Assembly (NCBI GenBank): GCA_937902985.1
Contig: CALFNG010000104.1
Span: 1-55,566 of the forward strand
Direction of reading: 5' to 3'
DNA length: 55,566 nucleotides
Source of the DNA: an uncultured Myxococcales bacterium
GTDB taxonomy: Bacteria > Myxococcota_A > Polyangia > Polyangiales > Polyangiaceae
The notes beneath the pieces were generated by a model. That model had not been told where the DNA came from. It saw only the letters and a list, made by a program, of their open reading frames with translations, and made no database searches. Shown piece after piece: positions 47,773 through 55,171 of this stretch. A program made the position numbers and the translations under genes. How positions within the stretch are numbered: the first letter of the stretch is position 1; each line of letters opens with the position of its first letter.

Positions 47773-49344
47773 TCACGCCAGCGCTCCGATGGCCGATTCG
47801 GCCGCCCCGACGAAACGGCGCGTCTCGATGAGCTCCGCCACACGCGCGATGTCTCGGTAGAGGGGGCGGTCTTCGGTCAAGGGAGCGACGAGCGCGCGCA
47901 CGGCCGCGTGCGCCGCGGCGACGCCCCGGCTTGGCGACAGGGGCGAGCGCTGATCGAGGCCGGCCGCGGCAGTCAGGATCTCGATCGCCAGCGCGTTGCG
48001 AACGTTCACGACGACCTGCTCGAACTTTCGCGCCGAGATGCTGCCCATGCTCACGTGGTCCTCTTTCCCCGCGCTCGACGGGATCGAGTCGACGCTCGCC
48101 GGGTGGCAGAGCACCTTGTTCTCGCTGACGAGCGACGCGCTGGCGACCTGCGCGATCATGAACCCCGAATGGAGACCGAGGCCCGGCGCGAGGAACGGCG
48201 TCAGCCCGGTGGAGAGCGCCGGATTCACGAGCTGCTCGACCCGGCGCTCGCTGACGTTCGCGAGCTCCGCGGCCGCCATGGCCGCGAGATCGAGCGCCAG
48301 CGCCAGGGGCTGACCGTGGAAGTTCCCTCCGCTGATCACGTCGGCGCCGCCGTCGTCCCGCAAGAAGACGCTCGGGTTGTCGGTGACGGAATTGACCTCG
48401 CGCTCGAGCACGCCGCGCACCCACGAGAGCGCGTCGCGCGAGGCGCCGTGGACCTGCGGCATGCAGCGCAGGCTGTAGGCGTCTTGCACGCGGCCGCAGT
48501 CTCGGTGGCTCTCCATGATCTCGCTCTCGGCGAGCATCGTGCGGAGGTTCCGGGCCACAACGGCCTGTCCGGGGTGCGGCCGCGCGACCTGCAGCCGAGG
48601 ATCGAAGGGGCCGCTGGAGCCCTTGAGGGCTTCGACGCTCATCGCGCCCGCGACGTCGGCCACGCGGCAAAGCTCTTCGGCGTCTAGGAGCGCGAGGGCG
48701 CCGGCGGAGGCCATGAACTGCGTCCCATTGATGAGCGACAGCCCCTCTTTCGCCTCGAGGACGATCGGCTGCACGCCGGCCTGCTGCATCGCCTCGGCCC
48801 CGGCGACGAAGTCTCCGCTCCCGAAGCGCGCCTCGCCTTCTCCGATCATGGCCAGCGCCAGATGAGCGAGCGGCGCCAGGTCGCCCGAGGCGCCGACCGA
48901 CCCTTGCGACGGGACGCGCGGATGGACGCCGGCGTTGAGCATCGCGACCAGCACGTCGACGAGCTCCGGGCGCACGCCGCTGTGGCCGAGCGCGAGCACC
49001 TGGGCGCGCAGCAGCATCATGCCGCGCACCTGGGCGACGCCGAGGTCGGGGCCGACCCCCGTCGAGTGGGACCTGACGAGGTTCTTCTGGAGCTGCCGCA
49101 CATCGGCGGCCGAGATGCGGGTCTCGCTGAGCGCCCCGAACCCCGTGTTCACGCCGTAGACGCGCGCGCCCGCGTCGCCCGCCTGGGTGATGGCATCGAT
49201 GGCGGCGCGCGATCGCGACATGCGGGCCCGGGCTTCGGCCCCAAGCGCAACCGGCCGGCCCCGACGGGCCACGTCTTCGAGAGCTTCGAGAGTCAGGCTC
49301 TCGCCCACGAGCACGGGCGGGAGCAAGGCAGAGCGGATGGCCAT
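47773..49344 (-). CDS. hutH: Histidine ammonia-lyase
   Basis: 523 residues from ATG 49344; ATG 49356 (MVAAMAIRS) is an equal alternative. Catalytic Tyr63 (VYGVNTGFG), the MIO-forming triad Ala152-Ser153-Gly154 ([14 protein letters not shown]), [35 protein letters not shown] and the [12 protein letters not shown] region are all present. It deaminates histidine to urocanate. No hutU/hutI/hutG is beside it. It is divergent from the radical-SAM gene with under 50 bp between starts, so promoters must overlap. Other MIO enzymes (PAL/TAL) are less likely because of the His-type [12 protein letters not shown] stretch. Confidence 0.93.
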
Positions 49345-49391
49345 GGCTGCCACCATCGTCCCACAATAATTCCAGGTAAGCTGGCACGCAG

Positions 49392-51200
49392 ATGAGTCAG
49401 ATCCTCCGTCTCGCAGCAAACACCATCTGGCCTCTTCTTCGCGCTTACAACACCCGGTTCGAACGCCCCTCGCCGCATCCGTCCTGGGCGCCCGCGCCCC
49501 TCCTCAAGCGTCGCGAGCGCACGTTCCCGCCCCTCGGCTGGCCCCGGGAGACCGACTCGCTCTGTCCGCAGTGCGTGAAGGAGGTGCGCGGGGCCATTCT
49601 CGACGGCAGCGCCGAGGTCCGGACCCTGGTCGAAGGGCGCCCGGGCGAAGTCCGCGCGCAGATCCTCGAGAAAGACGGCGCGCTCGTCATGACGAAGACC
49701 TGCGAGAAGCACGGCGAGTGCGAAGACGTGATCTCGGTCGACCTCCCGTTCACGGCGCGCATCGAGCGCCTCTTTCCGGGTCGCGATTTCGTATCCCCGG
49801 CGAGCAAGCTGCGAGACCACGGTACGTCGACCATCAAGTACGGCCGCGGGGCGGTGCTCACCGTCGACCTGACGAACCGCTGCAACATGATGTGCGACCC
49901 GTGCTTCATGGACGCGAACCAGGTCGGTTTCGTGCACGAGCTCGAGTGGGAAGAAGTTCAGAAGATCCTCGACGATTCGCTCGAGGTGAAGCCACGCCGG
50001 CAGATGAGCGTGCAGTTCTCGGGGGGCGAACCCACGCTGTCTCCGTACTTCCTTCGCGCGATCGGCTACGCGAAAGAAGCCGGCTACTTTTGCGTCCAGT
50101 GCGCCACCAACGGGATCGCCTTTGCCCAGGATCCGGCGCTGGCCACGGCGGCGAAAGAGGCGGGCCTGCGCCTCGCGTACCTGCAGTTCGACGGCGTGGG
50201 GGAGGAGTCGAACGCGCACCGCAAGGTGGGGAACCTCTTCGAGGTGAAGCTTCGCGCCATCGAGAACCTCCACGCCGCCGGCATCGACGTGGTGCTCGTG
50301 GTCACGGTCGTGCGTGGGGTCAACGACGACCAGGTGGGCCAGATCGTCCGCTTCGCGATCGAGAACGCCGACAAGATCACGGTCGTATCGTTCCAGCCGG
50401 TGAGCTTCACCGGTCGCGATGAAGACATCTCGGACGCGGACCGCAAGAGCCGCCGCTACACGCTCTCGCACCTCGCGCGCGATCTCCACGACCAGCTCGG
50501 CGCCACCGAGCCGATGCGCGATTGGTTCCCGCTCTCGTCGCTCGGCCCGTTCGGCGATCTGACGGACCTCATGCTGGCGGGAAAGACCGAGTGGGGCGCC
50601 CTCAAGTGCGGGTGCCATCCCAACTGCGGCATCGGCACCGCGCTCCTCGTGCAGAAGAGGACGCGTCAGATGGTTCCGCTCGCGCAGGTCCTCGATCTCG
50701 AGGGTCTCCTCGCCGACATCCAGGAGATCACCGACGCGGCCCAGCCGCGCGTCGTGACAATGGGCGCGCTCGCGGTCGCGCTCTGCCGCCGGTTCGACGC
50801 GCGCCAGGCGCCCCCCGGCTTCAGCATCGCGACGCTCGTCCGTCAGTTCCTCAGCCAGACCGGCGCGCGTGGAAGCGAGGTCGGCGCTCATGCGCAGGAC
50901 GCGGCCGAGTTCGAATGGCGCGTCCTCTTCGTGGCCGGCATGTGGTTTCAGGACCTCTTCAACTACGACTTTCGCCGCACCGAGATGTGCATCATCCCCT
51001 ACGGCACCCAGGAGGGCGAGATCAGCTTCTGCGCCTACAACACGGGCGTCGGGTGGCGGCAGGTCGTCGAGAAGATGCACGCCTCGGCGACGCTCGCCGA
51101 CTGGCACCGGACCCGCGGGCGGCACCCCGTCTACGCCAAGAACCAGAAGCTCCCGCTCCCCTCGCCTCGCGGCACGATCCGGCTGCCCATCGTGACCTGA
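49392..51200 (+). CDS. Radical SAM protein of the tetraether synthase (Tes/MJ0619-like) type
   Basis: 602 residues. An N-terminal iron-binding module has C58-P-Q-C61 (DSLCPQC) and C104 in TKTCEKHGE, as in archaeal Tes proteins. The radical-SAM cluster motif is C164-NMM-C168-DP-C171 ([14 protein letters not shown]), with SGGEPT at 210-215. Further cysteines at 406, 408 and 412 (LKCGCHPNC) and at 533 and 547 ([24 protein letters not shown]) sit where Tes has auxiliary Fe-S clusters and its C-terminal signature. Archaeal Tes joins the ends of two isoprenoid chains by radical C-C bond formation. In a bacterium the substrate could be fatty-acyl or alkyl chains; that is inference. Confidence 0.8.
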
Positions 51201-51298: not shown

Positions 51299-54200
51299 TT
51301 GTCCGCACCCAGCCCCGCACCGTGGTTTGGCGAATGGCGCATCGGGCGCGGGCGCGCCGTCCCCACGCTCGCGCTCAGCGCCGCCTCGCTGGCCTTCGTC
51401 CTGTCCGACACCCGCGCCGCTCTCTCCACGAACGCGCTCTCCACGAACCAAGCGCCGCCGGTCCGATGGACGGACGAGACACCGGACACGATGGTCGACG
51501 ACGCGGTCGCTCGGGCGACGTCGCCGGGCGCATCACAGCGCGCCCAGCTCGCGGCGATCGCGACCATCGCGTCGCTGTCCCAGCGTGCGCAAGAGGGTCA
51601 CGCCCAGAAGGCCCTCGCGCAGATCGGCGCCGCCGCCGATGCCGACGTGCGCGGCGAAGCGGCGCTCCTCGCGCGCACCCGCGCAGGCAACGAGGGCACC
51701 GACGACGGCGCGCACGAAGACGAGCAGCTCGGCGTGGTCGACGGGCTCGCCGTCCTGGGCCCCTTCCGCGACACCGGCGGCGGGCTCGACGCGCACGACG
51801 GACCCGAAGCGACGGCAGGGGCCTTCGCCGATCTTCACGCGAGATACTCGTGGGGCGCCTACGACGTGGCGTGGCGGCCCGTCCCTCGGGCGTTCGCCGG
51901 GGCCGATGGCGTTCCGCTCGACGTCTTCGTGTTCCCGCGGAAAGAGAGCTGCACGTGGATCGCGACGAAGCTCGTCGTGGCCGCCGACCAGAAGCTCGTG
52001 GTGCGGCTCTCCGCCACCGGGCAAGCGCGCCTCGTCTTCGACGGGACCGACCTCGGGCGCGACGACGCCGTGCACGAGAGCGCTCCGTTCGATCGCCTCG
52101 CCGCCCGCGTGCAGGCCGGAGCGGGCGCCCACTTGCTCGCAGCCAAGGTTTGCGCGGGCGCCCTCGACGACGACGGGCGCGTACGCCTGCGAGTCACCGA
52201 CGCGAACGGCGCGTGGCCTCAGGGCGTGACGGCGACCGCCGAGCTCTTCGGCTTGCCCGGCGCGGCCCCGGCGAACGGTCCGCCCTCGGCGCGCAAGCCG
52301 GCGCCGCGCGCCATCGTCGAGACCGTTGCCACGCCGCTCGGGCGCGCCCTCGCCGCCCCCGCGACCGACGTCGAGTCACGCACGCAAGTCGCCGTGCTGC
52401 GCACCCTGGGCGGCGCCGACGACCTGCGGAGCCCGCGCGCCCCCGGCCTCCTCGCTTCGCTGGCCGACGGGGCCATCGACGCCGATCACCTCGCGCTGGC
52501 CGCCTGGATCGCGCCGAGCGGAGCCAACCGCAGCGGGTGGCTCAATCGCGCTCGCGAAGCCTCCACGGGCGATGCCCGCACGCACGCCTTCGTCGAGCGG
52601 CGCCTGGTGGAGCGGCACGTCGAGGCCGGCCTCACCGACTGGGCGGTCGCCACCATCCTCGGCGCGAAGATCGACGCGGCAACCGACGCGGAGGCCGCGC
52701 TCCTGGCGTCGGAGGTCGACGGCGCGCTCGGCACGGAGGTCTTGCGGCGGCGCGCGATTGCGCGCCTCGACGCCGTGGCGCGACGAGACGCGAACGCGCC
52801 GACCACGCTGCTCACGATGCTCGCCGACTACCTCGGGCCCTACGATCCGAAGCGCTCCGCCGAGGTGCGCGAACTCCTCGCGCGGCGCGGAGAGGTCGGC
52901 GACGATCGCGTGGTCGCGACCGAAGCGCTGGGCCGCGCGGGGCTCATCCCTGTCGCTCGGCGAGCCCTCGCCGGCGGCATTAGCGACGCGGACGAGGCGC
53001 TCACCGTGGCGCAGGCCGTGGCGCGCTCGGGAGCGCACGACGAGGCACGGGCCATGTTCGAGCAGCTGGCCCGCTGGGCTCCGAACCGCGCGGCGGTGTG
53101 GGCGGGTCTCGCGCAAGAGACCAGCGCCGCCGCTCCTGCGCCCCAGCGCGACGAGGCGACTGCGATCGAGCTGCGCCGCGCCCGCGAACTCGACCCGGGC
53201 GAGGTGCGCTATCGCGCCGAGCTGGCGCTGCGCATCCGCTCGGCCACGGCAAACGGCGCGGCGGGTACCGCCGACGAACCGCACGACGACGAGAAGTACC
53301 TGGTGCCCTCGCCGGCGATCCTGGCGCGGCGGCAGGGCATCGCGCCCGGGCCCGAGGCGCCGAACGTGGCCGATCGTGAGCTCCACTGGCTGCGCGCGGT
53401 GGTGATGCATCCCGACCGCCGCGTCTCCGAGCTGGTGCACTACGCGCGCGAGATCGTGATCCCGCCGCGCACCGAAGAAGAGCTCTACGAGGACGTGCCC
53501 GCCGAGGGCGACCTCACGGAGATCGTGCGGGCGCGCGTGCATCGCAAAGACGGCAGCACCGCCTTTCCGGTCGAGGAGGCCAGCGACGACGCGCGCCCCC
53601 GCATCCGCTGGCCAGAGCTCGCGCCCGGCGACGTGGTCGAGGTGGCGTTCCGTTCGTGGACGGGCGGGCCCGTCGGCGGCCGAGGCGACCCGCCGTTCTT
53701 CCGCCTCGACTACGCCGGCGGCCAGGCGACGCACCCGGTCCTCTACAACGAAGTGGTGGTCGAGTCGCCGCGCGACCGCCCGATCTACGTCGACGTCGTC
53801 AACGGCAAGTCCGACCGGCGCGACGAGCACGACGAAGGCGCCGCCCACGTCGTCCGCCTCGTCTGGGACCGGCCCGTCAACATTCCCGACGAACCCCTCG
53901 CGCCGCCGCTCAGCGAGATTATTCCCACGCTGGTGCTCTCGACGTTCAAAGACTGGGACGCCTTCCGCGCGTGGTACGGCGAGGCGGTCCGCGGCTTCAC
54001 CGAGCCCGACGCCCAGGTGCGCGAGCTCGCCGCCAAGCTCACCGCCGGCAAGGCCACGCGCGAGGCGCGCCTGCAGGCCCTCTTCAACTTCGTGGCCGAT
54101 GACATCCGCTACGTGAACTACGTGAGCGGCGAGTGGTGGTTGCCGAACCGCCCGCAGCAGCTCCTGGCCCGGCGCGAAGGCGACTGCGACGACAAGGCGC

Positions 54201-55171
54201 TCTTGCTGATCACGCTCCTCAAGGCCGTGGGGATCGACGCCCAGGAGGTCATGGTGCAGACGCGGCTGACGGGGCAGCCTTCGGTCGTCCGCGCGCGGGG
54301 CGCGGCGATCCCGCTCTTCGATCATGGCATCGCGTTCCTTCCGGGGCCGAACGGGGGCACCTACCTCGACGCGACGAGCCCCCAGTCGCGCCTCGGGCCG
54401 CTGCCATCGATGGACGCGCGCGCGGTCGCGCTCCGCCTCGACGGTCCCGCCGAGATCGTCGAGCTCCCGTCGAGCACCCCCGAAGAGCACGGCGTCGACG
54501 CGACCTGGACGCTCGGCCTCAAGCCCGACGGCAGCGCGGATCTTCAGGGCGAGGAGCACGCGACGGGCGACGACGCGTTCTGGATGCGCACCTACCTCAC
54601 CGAGCCCGGAGCGCGAGCGCAGTGGGTCGAAGAGCACCTCGTCGGGCCTTGGTTTCCTACGGTCGAAGTCGACAAGAAGGTCGACTTCGAGGGCGACCTG
54701 CCGCGCGGCTCGGCCATCACGCGCTGGCGCGCGCGGTCGAGCGGTCTCGCGCGTCACGAGGGGCTAGAGCTCGTCGTGCCCCTCTCTCCGTCCCAGACGC
54801 TGGCGTCCCAGCTCGCGCCGCTCGTGAAGCGCACGCTGCCGGTGTGGCTGCCGCCCAACGTGGCGCCACGCAAAGAATCGAGGACCATCCGCGTGGTCGC
54901 GCCGCCCGGCTACGCGTTCGAGGCGCTGCCTGCGGGCGGCGACGAGAACAACGGCGCCTTCGGCCGCGCGCACCTCGAGCTGGCGCGCGATCCGCGCAAC
55001 GCGAGCGCCATCGTCGTGAAGCGCACGGTCGTCTTCGACCGGAGCGTCATTGTGGTCGACGACTACCCCAAATGGCGCGCCTGGGTGCAGCGGGTCGATG
55101 CCCTCATGCACCGGACGGTGCGCCTCGTCCCCGCGGCGCCGGCCGCCACCGCGGCGCGAGGTGCGCGATGA
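51299..55171 (+). CDS. DUF3857/transglutaminase-like protein with TPR region, envelope-anchored
   Basis: 1290 residues from TTG 51299; an in-frame TAG just upstream excludes an earlier start. A hydrophobic N-terminal anchor (LALSAASLAFVLSD) leads to a helical/beta region, a TPR-like middle (GAHDEARAMFEQLARWAPNRAAVWAGL), then DUF3857 near 690-830 (HYAREIVIPPRTEEELYEDV, RIRWPELAPGDVVEVAF). The transglutaminase-like core follows: FNFVADDIRYV, REGDCDDKALLL with catalytic Cys, FDHGIAF with His and TYLDAT with Asp. The C-terminal beta region resembles DUF2135-type tails. The triad is complete, so it may be an active protease or crosslinking enzyme. It overlaps the next lipoprotein start by ATGA. 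Confidence 0.85.
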   Translation: MSAPSPAPWFGEWRIGRGRAVPTLALSAASLAFVLSDTRAALSTNALSTNQAPPVRWTDETPDTMVDDAVARATSPGASQRAQLAAIATIASLSQRAQEGHAQKALAQIGAAADADVRGEAALLARTRAGNEGTDDGAHEDEQLGVVDGLAVLGPFRDTGGGLDAHDGPEATAGAFADLHARYSWGAYDVAWRPVPRAFAGADGVPLDVFVFPRKESCTWIATKLVVAADQKLVVRLSATGQARLVFDGTDLGRDDAVHESAPFDRLAARVQAGAGAHLLAAKVCAGALDDDGRVRLRVTDANGAWPQGVTATAELFGLPGAAPANGPPSARKPAPRAIVETVATPLGRALAAPATDVESRTQVAVLRTLGGADDLRSPRAPGLLASLADGAIDADHLALAAWIAPSGANRSGWLNRAREASTGDARTHAFVERRLVERHVEAGLTDWAVATILGAKIDAATDAEAALLASEVDGALGTEVLRRRAIARLDAVARRDANAPTTLLTMLADYLGPYDPKRSAEVRELLARRGEVGDDRVVATEALGRAGLIPVARRALAGGISDADEALTVAQAVARSGAHDEARAMFEQLARWAPNRAAVWAGLAQETSAAAPAPQRDEATAIELRRARELDPGEVRYRAELALRIRSATANGAAGTADEPHDDEKYLVPSPAILARRQGIAPGPEAPNVADRELHWLRAVVMHPDRRVSELVHYAREIVIPPRTEEELYEDVPAEGDLTEIVRARVHRKDGSTAFPVEEASDDARPRIRWPELAPGDVVEVAFRSWTGGPVGGRGDPPFFRLDYAGGQATHPVLYNEVVVESPRDRPIYVDVVNGKSDRRDEHDEGAAHVVRLVWDRPVNIPDEPLAPPLSEIIPTLVLSTFKDWDAFRAWYGEAVRGFTEPDAQVRELAAKLTAGKATREARLQALFNFVADDIRYVNYVSGEWWLPNRPQQLLARREGDCDDKALLLITLLKAVGIDAQEVMVQTRLTGQPSVVRARGAAIPLFDHGIAFLPGPNGGTYLDATSPQSRLGPLPSMDARAVALRLDGPAEIVELPSSTPEEHGVDATWTLGLKPDGSADLQGEEHATGDDAFWMRTYLTEPGARAQWVEEHLVGPWFPTVEVDKKVDFEGDLPRGSAITRWRARSSGLARHEGLELVVPLSPSQTLASQLAPLVKRTLPVWLPPNVAPRKESRTIRVVAPPGYAFEALPAGGDENNGAFGRAHLELARDPRNASAIVVKRTVVFDRSVIVVDDYPKWRAWVQRVDALMHRTVRLVPAAPAATAARGAR

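What the first reader, a model, noticed from the sequence alone, without database searches (positions are those of the whole stretch)
49392..51200. Bacterial homologue of archaeal tetraether lipid synthase
Seen: N-terminal CPxC...CxxHGE iron module, CxxxCxxC radical-SAM core, CxCxxxC and a C-terminal FNYDF...C...FCAYN motif, i.e. the full Tes-like cysteine layout. Known: Tes and MJ0619-like enzymes build C-C bonds between lipid tails. Inference: this organism may make membrane-spanning or alkyl-coupled lipids, which would be notable in Myxococcota. Solitary placement, divergent from hutH, gives no pathway context.
Basis: partly seen in the sequence, partly recalled or inferred. Interest (0 to 1): 0.75.

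Follow-up and report, generated by a model that had tools for sequence, protein, structure and literature searches.

The report
Bacterial variant of tetraether lipid synthase
A bacterium of the Polyangiaceae group carries an enzyme shaped like the one archaea use to weld two lipid tails into a membrane-spanning lipid; it belongs to a separate bacterial branch that has lost one of the iron-sulfur clusters and is a good but untested candidate for making membrane-spanning lipids in bacteria.

Summary
The 602-aa radical SAM protein at 49392-51200 (+) is a real Tes homologue: phmmer to 7TOL/MJ0619 E 2.4e-70; the AlphaFold model (pLDDT 91) superposes on 7TOL at Z 41, 477 residues, 2.3 A. The 'full Tes-like cysteine layout' is wrong: the N-terminal auxiliary cluster ligands (MJ C73/C77/C80/H83) are absent in 100 of 100 members of its clade and present in 31 of 31 canonical Tes. 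Rubredoxin, radical-SAM and C-terminal cluster ligands, Met439 and Tyr459 are kept. It scores 331 bits against a Tes cut-off of 450; its clade (SH-aLRT 100) sits on a long stem beside or inside bacterial Tes. Such genes are common in Polyangiaceae and Acidobacteriota, and bacterial Tes homologues were reported in 2022. New here: in Acidobacteriota the clade lies upstream of canonical Tes on the same strand in all 8 linked cases read; all 17 sampled Myxococcota with the gene also carry the PlsA/Ger domain DUF2229 (117 of 267 others), and the host's copy has the two-activase-domain form linked to alkyl-ether formation. Best reading: tail-to-tail coupling of iso-branched phospholipid chains (iso-diabolic acid type). 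Not shown experimentally.

The parts
49392..51200 (+). Tes-like radical SAM protein, 602 aa (P0001), clade 'P'
   Evidence: ORF, Pfam Radical_SAM + Zn_ribbon_HMPTM, NCBIfam Tes 331 bits, PDB 7tol 2.4e-70
49395..49457 (+). N-terminal amphipathic helix, residues 2-22; the 18-mer with the highest hydrophobic moment of the protein lies here (possible membrane-surface contact, inferred)
49563..49574 (+). Rubredoxin-type iron ligands C58, C61 (CPQC)
49701..49712 (+). Rubredoxin-type iron ligands C104, H107 (= MJ C33, H36)
49806..49838 (+). Site where Tes has its N-terminal auxiliary [4Fe-4S] motif; all ligands lost here (residues 139-149)
49881..49904 (+). Radical-SAM cluster motif C164-x3-C168-x2-C171
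50607..50627 (+). CGCHPNC: C412 = MJ C338 column; C406 is invariant in this clade and I/L/V in canonical Tes
50937..50954 (+). GMWFQD with M517 = MJ Met439 (labile ligand of the C-terminal cluster)
50988..51002 (+). C533 and Y537 = MJ C455 column and Tyr459
51027..51041 (+). FCAYN, C547 = MJ C470 column
47773..49359 (-). hutH-type aromatic amino acid lyase, divergent neighbour; not seen among the recurrent neighbours of relatives
51299..55171 (+). Downstream 1290-aa protein with transglutaminase core; no evident link

Best explanation
The gene encodes a lipid-tail coupling radical SAM enzyme, a bacterial sister type of Tes that has dropped the surface N-terminal auxiliary cluster. Two phospholipids bind with one acyl or alkyl tail each in hydrophobic pockets (inferred from 7TOL/7TOM and the shared fold). 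SAM bound at the C164/C168/C171 cluster is cleaved; the 5'-deoxyadenosyl radical takes an H from the tail end; the carbon radical is parked on a sulfur of the C-terminal [4Fe-4S] cluster (C412, C533, C547, M517); a second H abstraction on the other tail gives the C-C bond (mechanism shown for MJ0619 only, inferred here). The likely bacterial product is an iso-diabolic-acid type chain from two iso-C15 tails, ester-linked or, with the Ger-like reductase that the host also encodes, ether-linked. Shown here: homology, fold, active-site conservation, clade and loss of the N cluster, linkage to canonical Tes in Acidobacteriota, co-occurrence with PlsA/Ger-type genes. Inferred: substrate, product and membrane association.
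For: 7tol is the best hit by sequence, 2.4e-70, and by structure, Z 41.0 over 477 residues, next family MoaA at Z 20. Ligand columns of the rubredoxin, radical-SAM and C-terminal clusters, M439 and Y459 kept in 100/100 clade members; SAM-site residues F106, G145, Y195, D199, V236, T238, Q268, S271, R275 kept in all, T273 in 99/100. In one Terriglobales family 7 of 15 canonical-Tes carriers have the P gene within 13 kb, one Bryobacteraceae genome has the pair adjacent, and in all 8 regions read the order is P then Tes on one strand. P-positive Myxococcota: 17/17 with DUF2229 against 117/267; the host's protein has 2x PF01869 + DUF2229, a form linked to alkyl-ether-forming Ger (PMC13274423). About 90 of 120 genomes of the family of a subdivision-1 MAG carry the P type; Edaphobacter (subdivision 1) strains contain 12-30% iso-diabolic acid (PMC11354219), whose synthase in Acidobacteria was described as unknown (PMC10087280).
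Against: 331 bits, under the Tes cut-off of 450. The long stem, the changed N108 and R210 positions in the SAM site and the lost cluster could mean another reaction. Genomes with both types suggest the two are not redundant. No lipid-gene operon around the gene. No record found of diabolic acids in Polyangiales. Activity of bacterial Tes homologues is unproven (PMC11868695). S. usitatus makes brGDGTs but no detectable iso-diabolic acid and has two Tes homologues whose types were not resolved here (PMC10087280). Co-occurrence counts are not corrected for relatedness.
Confidence: 0.52

Rival explanations
1. A lipid-active radical SAM enzyme of the Tes fold that does something other than tail-to-tail coupling: a cross-link at another chain position (as the GMGT synthase Gms does in archaea), cyclisation, desaturation or alkyl addition, perhaps acting before or after canonical Tes in genomes that have both.
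For: Coexistence and linkage with canonical Tes; long stem and SAM-site substitutions; clade-specific invariant C406.
Against: All coupling-relevant columns of Tes are kept in 100/100; the clade is common where no gene over the Tes cut-off is found, as in the sampled Myxococcota.
Confidence: 0.22
2. The enzyme works on another hydrophobic substrate (hopanoid, quinone, carotenoid, polyketide or lipid A chain), not on phospholipid tails.
For: Solitary gene with unrelated neighbours; no diabolic lipids on record for Polyangiales in the papers searched.
Against: Fold match extends over the whole Tes chain; linkage to Tes and co-occurrence with PlsA/Ger-type genes.
Confidence: 0.16
3. It is a plain Tes orthologue with the same function as in archaea, only diverged in sequence.
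For: Best match in the PDB and among NCBIfam equivalogs is Tes.
Against: Below the Tes cut-off while Acidobacteriota also hold genes above it (472-619 bits); loss of the N cluster; separate clade; both types in one genome.
Confidence: 0.08
4. A degenerate or regulatory relative without catalysis.
For: One cofactor site is lost.
Against: Every radical-SAM and C-terminal cluster ligand column is invariant in 100 sequences, mostly from Myxococcota and Acidobacteriota.
Confidence: 0.02

Closest known systems
Tetraether synthase Tes / GDGT-MAS (MJ0619, PDB 7TOL/7TOM; NCBIfam NF045702)
   Same: Whole-chain fold, rubredoxin-type Fe ligands, radical-SAM motif, C-terminal cluster cysteine columns, Met439, Tyr459, most SAM-site residues.
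   Different: No N-terminal auxiliary cluster ligands; extra invariant C406; N108 and R210 changed; N-terminal amphipathic helix; 331 bits against a cut-off of 450; own clade.
Bacterial canonical Tes homologues of Acidobacteriota (472-619 bits)
   Same: Nearest group in the tree; close to the P gene in several genomes.
   Different: Keep all four N-cluster ligands and pass the Tes cut-off; both types can occur in one genome.
TrsS-like radical SAM (seleno)protein family (NF045646) and distant 'D' relatives
   Same: Shared N-terminal and radical-SAM half.
   Different: D group keeps the N-cluster ligands but has mostly lost Tyr459 and the C455/C470 cysteines; falls on the other side of a 98-support branch.
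Mss, membrane-spanning lipid synthase of Bacillota and other bacteria
   Same: Same type of product expected (iso-diabolic acid lipids); models reported to share the Tes catalytic architecture (PMC13274423).
   Different: No Mss sequence was available here, so the relation was not tested.

Membership tests
Radical SAM superfamily (PF04055) | CxxxCxxC motif and family score over cut-off | tested here: met
   71.3 bits against 29.5; C164/C168/C171 in 100/100
Tes (NF045702 equivalog) | Score at or above the curated cut-off of 450 bits | tested here: not met
   331.3 bits
Tes | Rubredoxin-type Fe ligands CxxC...CxxH | tested here: met
   C58, C61, C104, H107 in 100/100
Tes | N-terminal auxiliary [4Fe-4S] ligands C73, C77, C80, H83 | tested here: not met
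   0/100 in this clade, 31/31 in canonical Tes
Tes | C-terminal auxiliary cluster columns C338, C455, C470 with Met439; Tyr459 conserved | tested here: met
   100/100 each; which cysteines are ligands is inferred from their invariance
Tes | Whole-chain Tes fold | tested here: met
   Z 41.0, rmsd 2.3, 477 of 493 residues of 7tol
Tes | Falls with Tes and not with other radical SAM families in a tree | tested here: met
   P + T on one side of a branch, support 98; P itself 100 (quick search, long branches)
Tes | sp3-sp3 coupling of lipid tail ends | not testable with these tools
   needs biochemistry or genetics
TrsS (NF045646) | Score at or above 490 bits | tested here: not met
   213 bits
Mss | Sequence similarity to a proven Mss | not tested
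   no Mss sequence on hand

The most novel reading that the evidence does not exclude
This N-cluster-less clade is the missing synthase for iso-diabolic acid type membrane-spanning lipids in aerobic soil bacteria (Acidobacteriota subdivisions 1, 3 and 4), and its presence in Polyangiaceae means that myxobacteria such as Sorangium and Polyangium make membrane-spanning lipids that routine fatty-acid methyl ester analysis has missed.
Probability: 0.35. Interest if true: 0.8.

Novelty: new variant of a known kind. Interest (0 to 1): 0.52.

Why it matters
Bacterial membrane-spanning lipids are the basis of widely used soil and lake temperature proxies, yet the enzyme that couples the tails in aerobic Acidobacteriota was described as unknown in the literature read here. 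A clade defined by a clear structural mark (no N-terminal cluster), found in about 90 of 120 sampled genomes of a subdivision-1 family, linked to canonical Tes and present in culturable myxobacteria, gives a concrete gene to delete or express. It also bears on the Tes mechanism: PMC9433317 states that the role of the other metallocofactors is unclear, and this clade suggests that the N-terminal cluster is dispensable for whatever chemistry is conserved.

Tried and rejected
Viral-contig scan with MJ0619 for archaeal relatives: nothing. Neighbourhood search over 96 loci for a lipid operon: no neighbour family in more than 9 loci; the recurrent ones annotated (protein kinase, cyclophilin, metallophosphatase, HEAT repeats, molybdopterin-binding domain, UPF0047, ClpB) look unrelated. 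A first gene-calling pass picked antisense frames in 28 loci and was replaced (then 54). Pterin methylase ('class D') reading: PMC9433317 could not corroborate it for MJ0619, so it was not pursued. The pair of Tes types was first seen as a possible lipid operon, but the annotated genes around it are housekeeping or unknown. No PDB fold other than Tes came near.

Full report
What was checked. The ORF at 49392-51200 (+) is intact, 602 aa, ATG start. GC 0.67 and GC3 0.89, against window GC 0.68. Pfam: Radical_SAM 71.3 bits, HMPTM N-terminal zinc ribbon 43.7 bits. NCBIfam: Tes first at 331.3 bits, E 8.6e-99, but under its cut-off of 450; TrsS second at 213. PDB: 7tol, M. jannaschii Tes, E 2.4e-70.

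Cysteine layout. I aligned 100 members of the gene's own clade (P), 31 canonical Tes (T: MJ0619 and Acidobacteriota) and 15 distant relatives (D), and mapped MJ0619 numbering onto them. The MJ0619 sequence (chain residues 36-514) was taken from the printed phmmer alignment; its first two rubredoxin cysteines lie outside that stretch. Rubredoxin ligands, the radical-SAM motif, C338, Met439, C455, Tyr459 and C470 are in 100/100 P and 31/31 T sequences (the first two rubredoxin cysteines in 29/31 T, the other rows being cut there). C406 is invariant in P and I/L/V in most T. In the SAM site N108 is D in 100/100 P, and R210 is mostly K (69), with G 12 and R 8.

Structure. AlphaFold2 on a 98-sequence alignment gave pLDDT 91.4, pTM 0.92. 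VIA-align to 7tol: Z 41.0, 477 residues, rmsd 2.3; the next family, MoaA, has Z 20.1. Residues 2-22 form a helix ahead of the Tes-homologous part; the 18-mer with the highest hydrophobic moment in the protein starts at residue 1. Membrane contact is an inference.

Phylogeny. In a quick IQ-TREE run P is one clade (SH-aLRT 100) on a stem of 2.4 changes per column; P and T together are separated from D with support 98, and most bacterial T and P join with 100 to the exclusion of MJ0619 and two archaeal-like acidobacterial sequences. Whether P lies beside or within bacterial T is unsure (support 83, long branches).

Distribution. Myxococcota, 284 genomes including the host: full-length P-type hits (321-365 bits) in 17, of which 14 are in the host's family (the host and 13 of 21 others); none over the Tes cut-off. 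Named carriers include Sorangium cellulosum, Polyangium and Minicystis rosea. Acidobacteriota, 347 genomes: 194 with a match and 38 over the Tes cut-off; the listed scores fall into two groups (472-619 and about 300-350). In the family of a 'gp1' MAG, 103 of 120 have a match, by my count about 90 a full-length P type, and 15 a canonical Tes; in Bryobacteraceae 54 of 61 have a match and 20 a canonical Tes.

Linkage. Of the 15 canonical-Tes carriers in the gp1 family, 7 have the P gene within 13 kb on the same contig; another case is a Bryobacteraceae genome with the two adjacent. I read all 8 regions: P comes first and Tes second on the same strand every time, with the gap from about 0.2 to 11 kb. 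A naive chance figure (4e-13) ignores relatedness and should not be quoted as a p-value; the finding is that order and strand are kept while the genes between differ. The annotated flanking genes are not lipid genes.

Ether-lipid capacity. DUF2229 (PF09989) occurs in PlsA/Ger-type proteins (own knowledge; the search rang in T. maritima, for which a modified PlsA is reported in PMC8788747). In the host's family 14/14 P-positive genomes have it, against 3/8 P-negative; in the phylum sample 17/17 against 117/267. Fisher p 0.002 and 1.6e-6, uncorrected for relatedness. The host's protein (G000:C97, 1268 aa) has two PF01869 domains (66-289 and 414-676) plus DUF2229. PMC13274423 links two such domains to Ger, which makes alkyl ethers, and one to plasmalogen formation, but also says that sequence alone cannot decide between them.

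Literature. Zeng et al. 2022 (PMC8941075) found 456 bacterial Tes homologues and proposed a role in brGDGTs; PMC9433317 noted bacterial homologues; PMC10087280 proposed the two S. usitatus Tes homologues for its brGDGTs; PMC11868695 states that bacterial Tes activity is unconfirmed. None of the passages I read separates the clade described here or notes the missing cluster, but supplements and subscription papers were out of reach. Iso-diabolic acid is 12-30% of fatty acids in Edaphobacter, and some lipid procedures cannot detect it (PMC11354219).

Verdict. A Tes-like enzyme of a distinct bacterial type. It works, most likely, like Tes; it is not filed as a member of Tes as curated, since two tested defining features are not met. 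Coupling of iso-branched tails is the best reading at about one in two.

Noticed in passing
G226:C313, G068:C568, G028:C309: Distant Tes/TrsS-like radical SAM genes occur as up to three copies on one contig in Myxococcota; the sampled D group keeps the N-cluster ligands but mostly lacks the C-terminal cluster cysteines.
   Followed up: partly
L115 (haloarchaeal plasmid NZ_CP147842.1), L116 (Mycolicibacterium plasmid NZ_CP126902.1): Plasmid-borne Tes-like radical SAM genes each followed directly by a methyltransferase-domain gene.
   Followed up: no
L128, L129 (G555, G586): Two acidobacterial sequences are 46-48% identical to M. jannaschii Tes and branch apart from the other bacterial Tes, as a transfer from archaea or a mis-binned contig would give.
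   Followed up: no
G596:C387:1318-2796 (L148): A canonical Tes gene with one in-frame TAA: broken gene or sequencing error.
   Followed up: no
L063: Record titled Acidimicrobiia, but its genome (G292) appears in the Acidobacteriota sample and the gene clusters with acidobacterial ones: probably a mislabelled MAG.
   Followed up: partly
window 51299-55171: 1290-aa protein with a transglutaminase core directly downstream of the gene.
   Followed up: no
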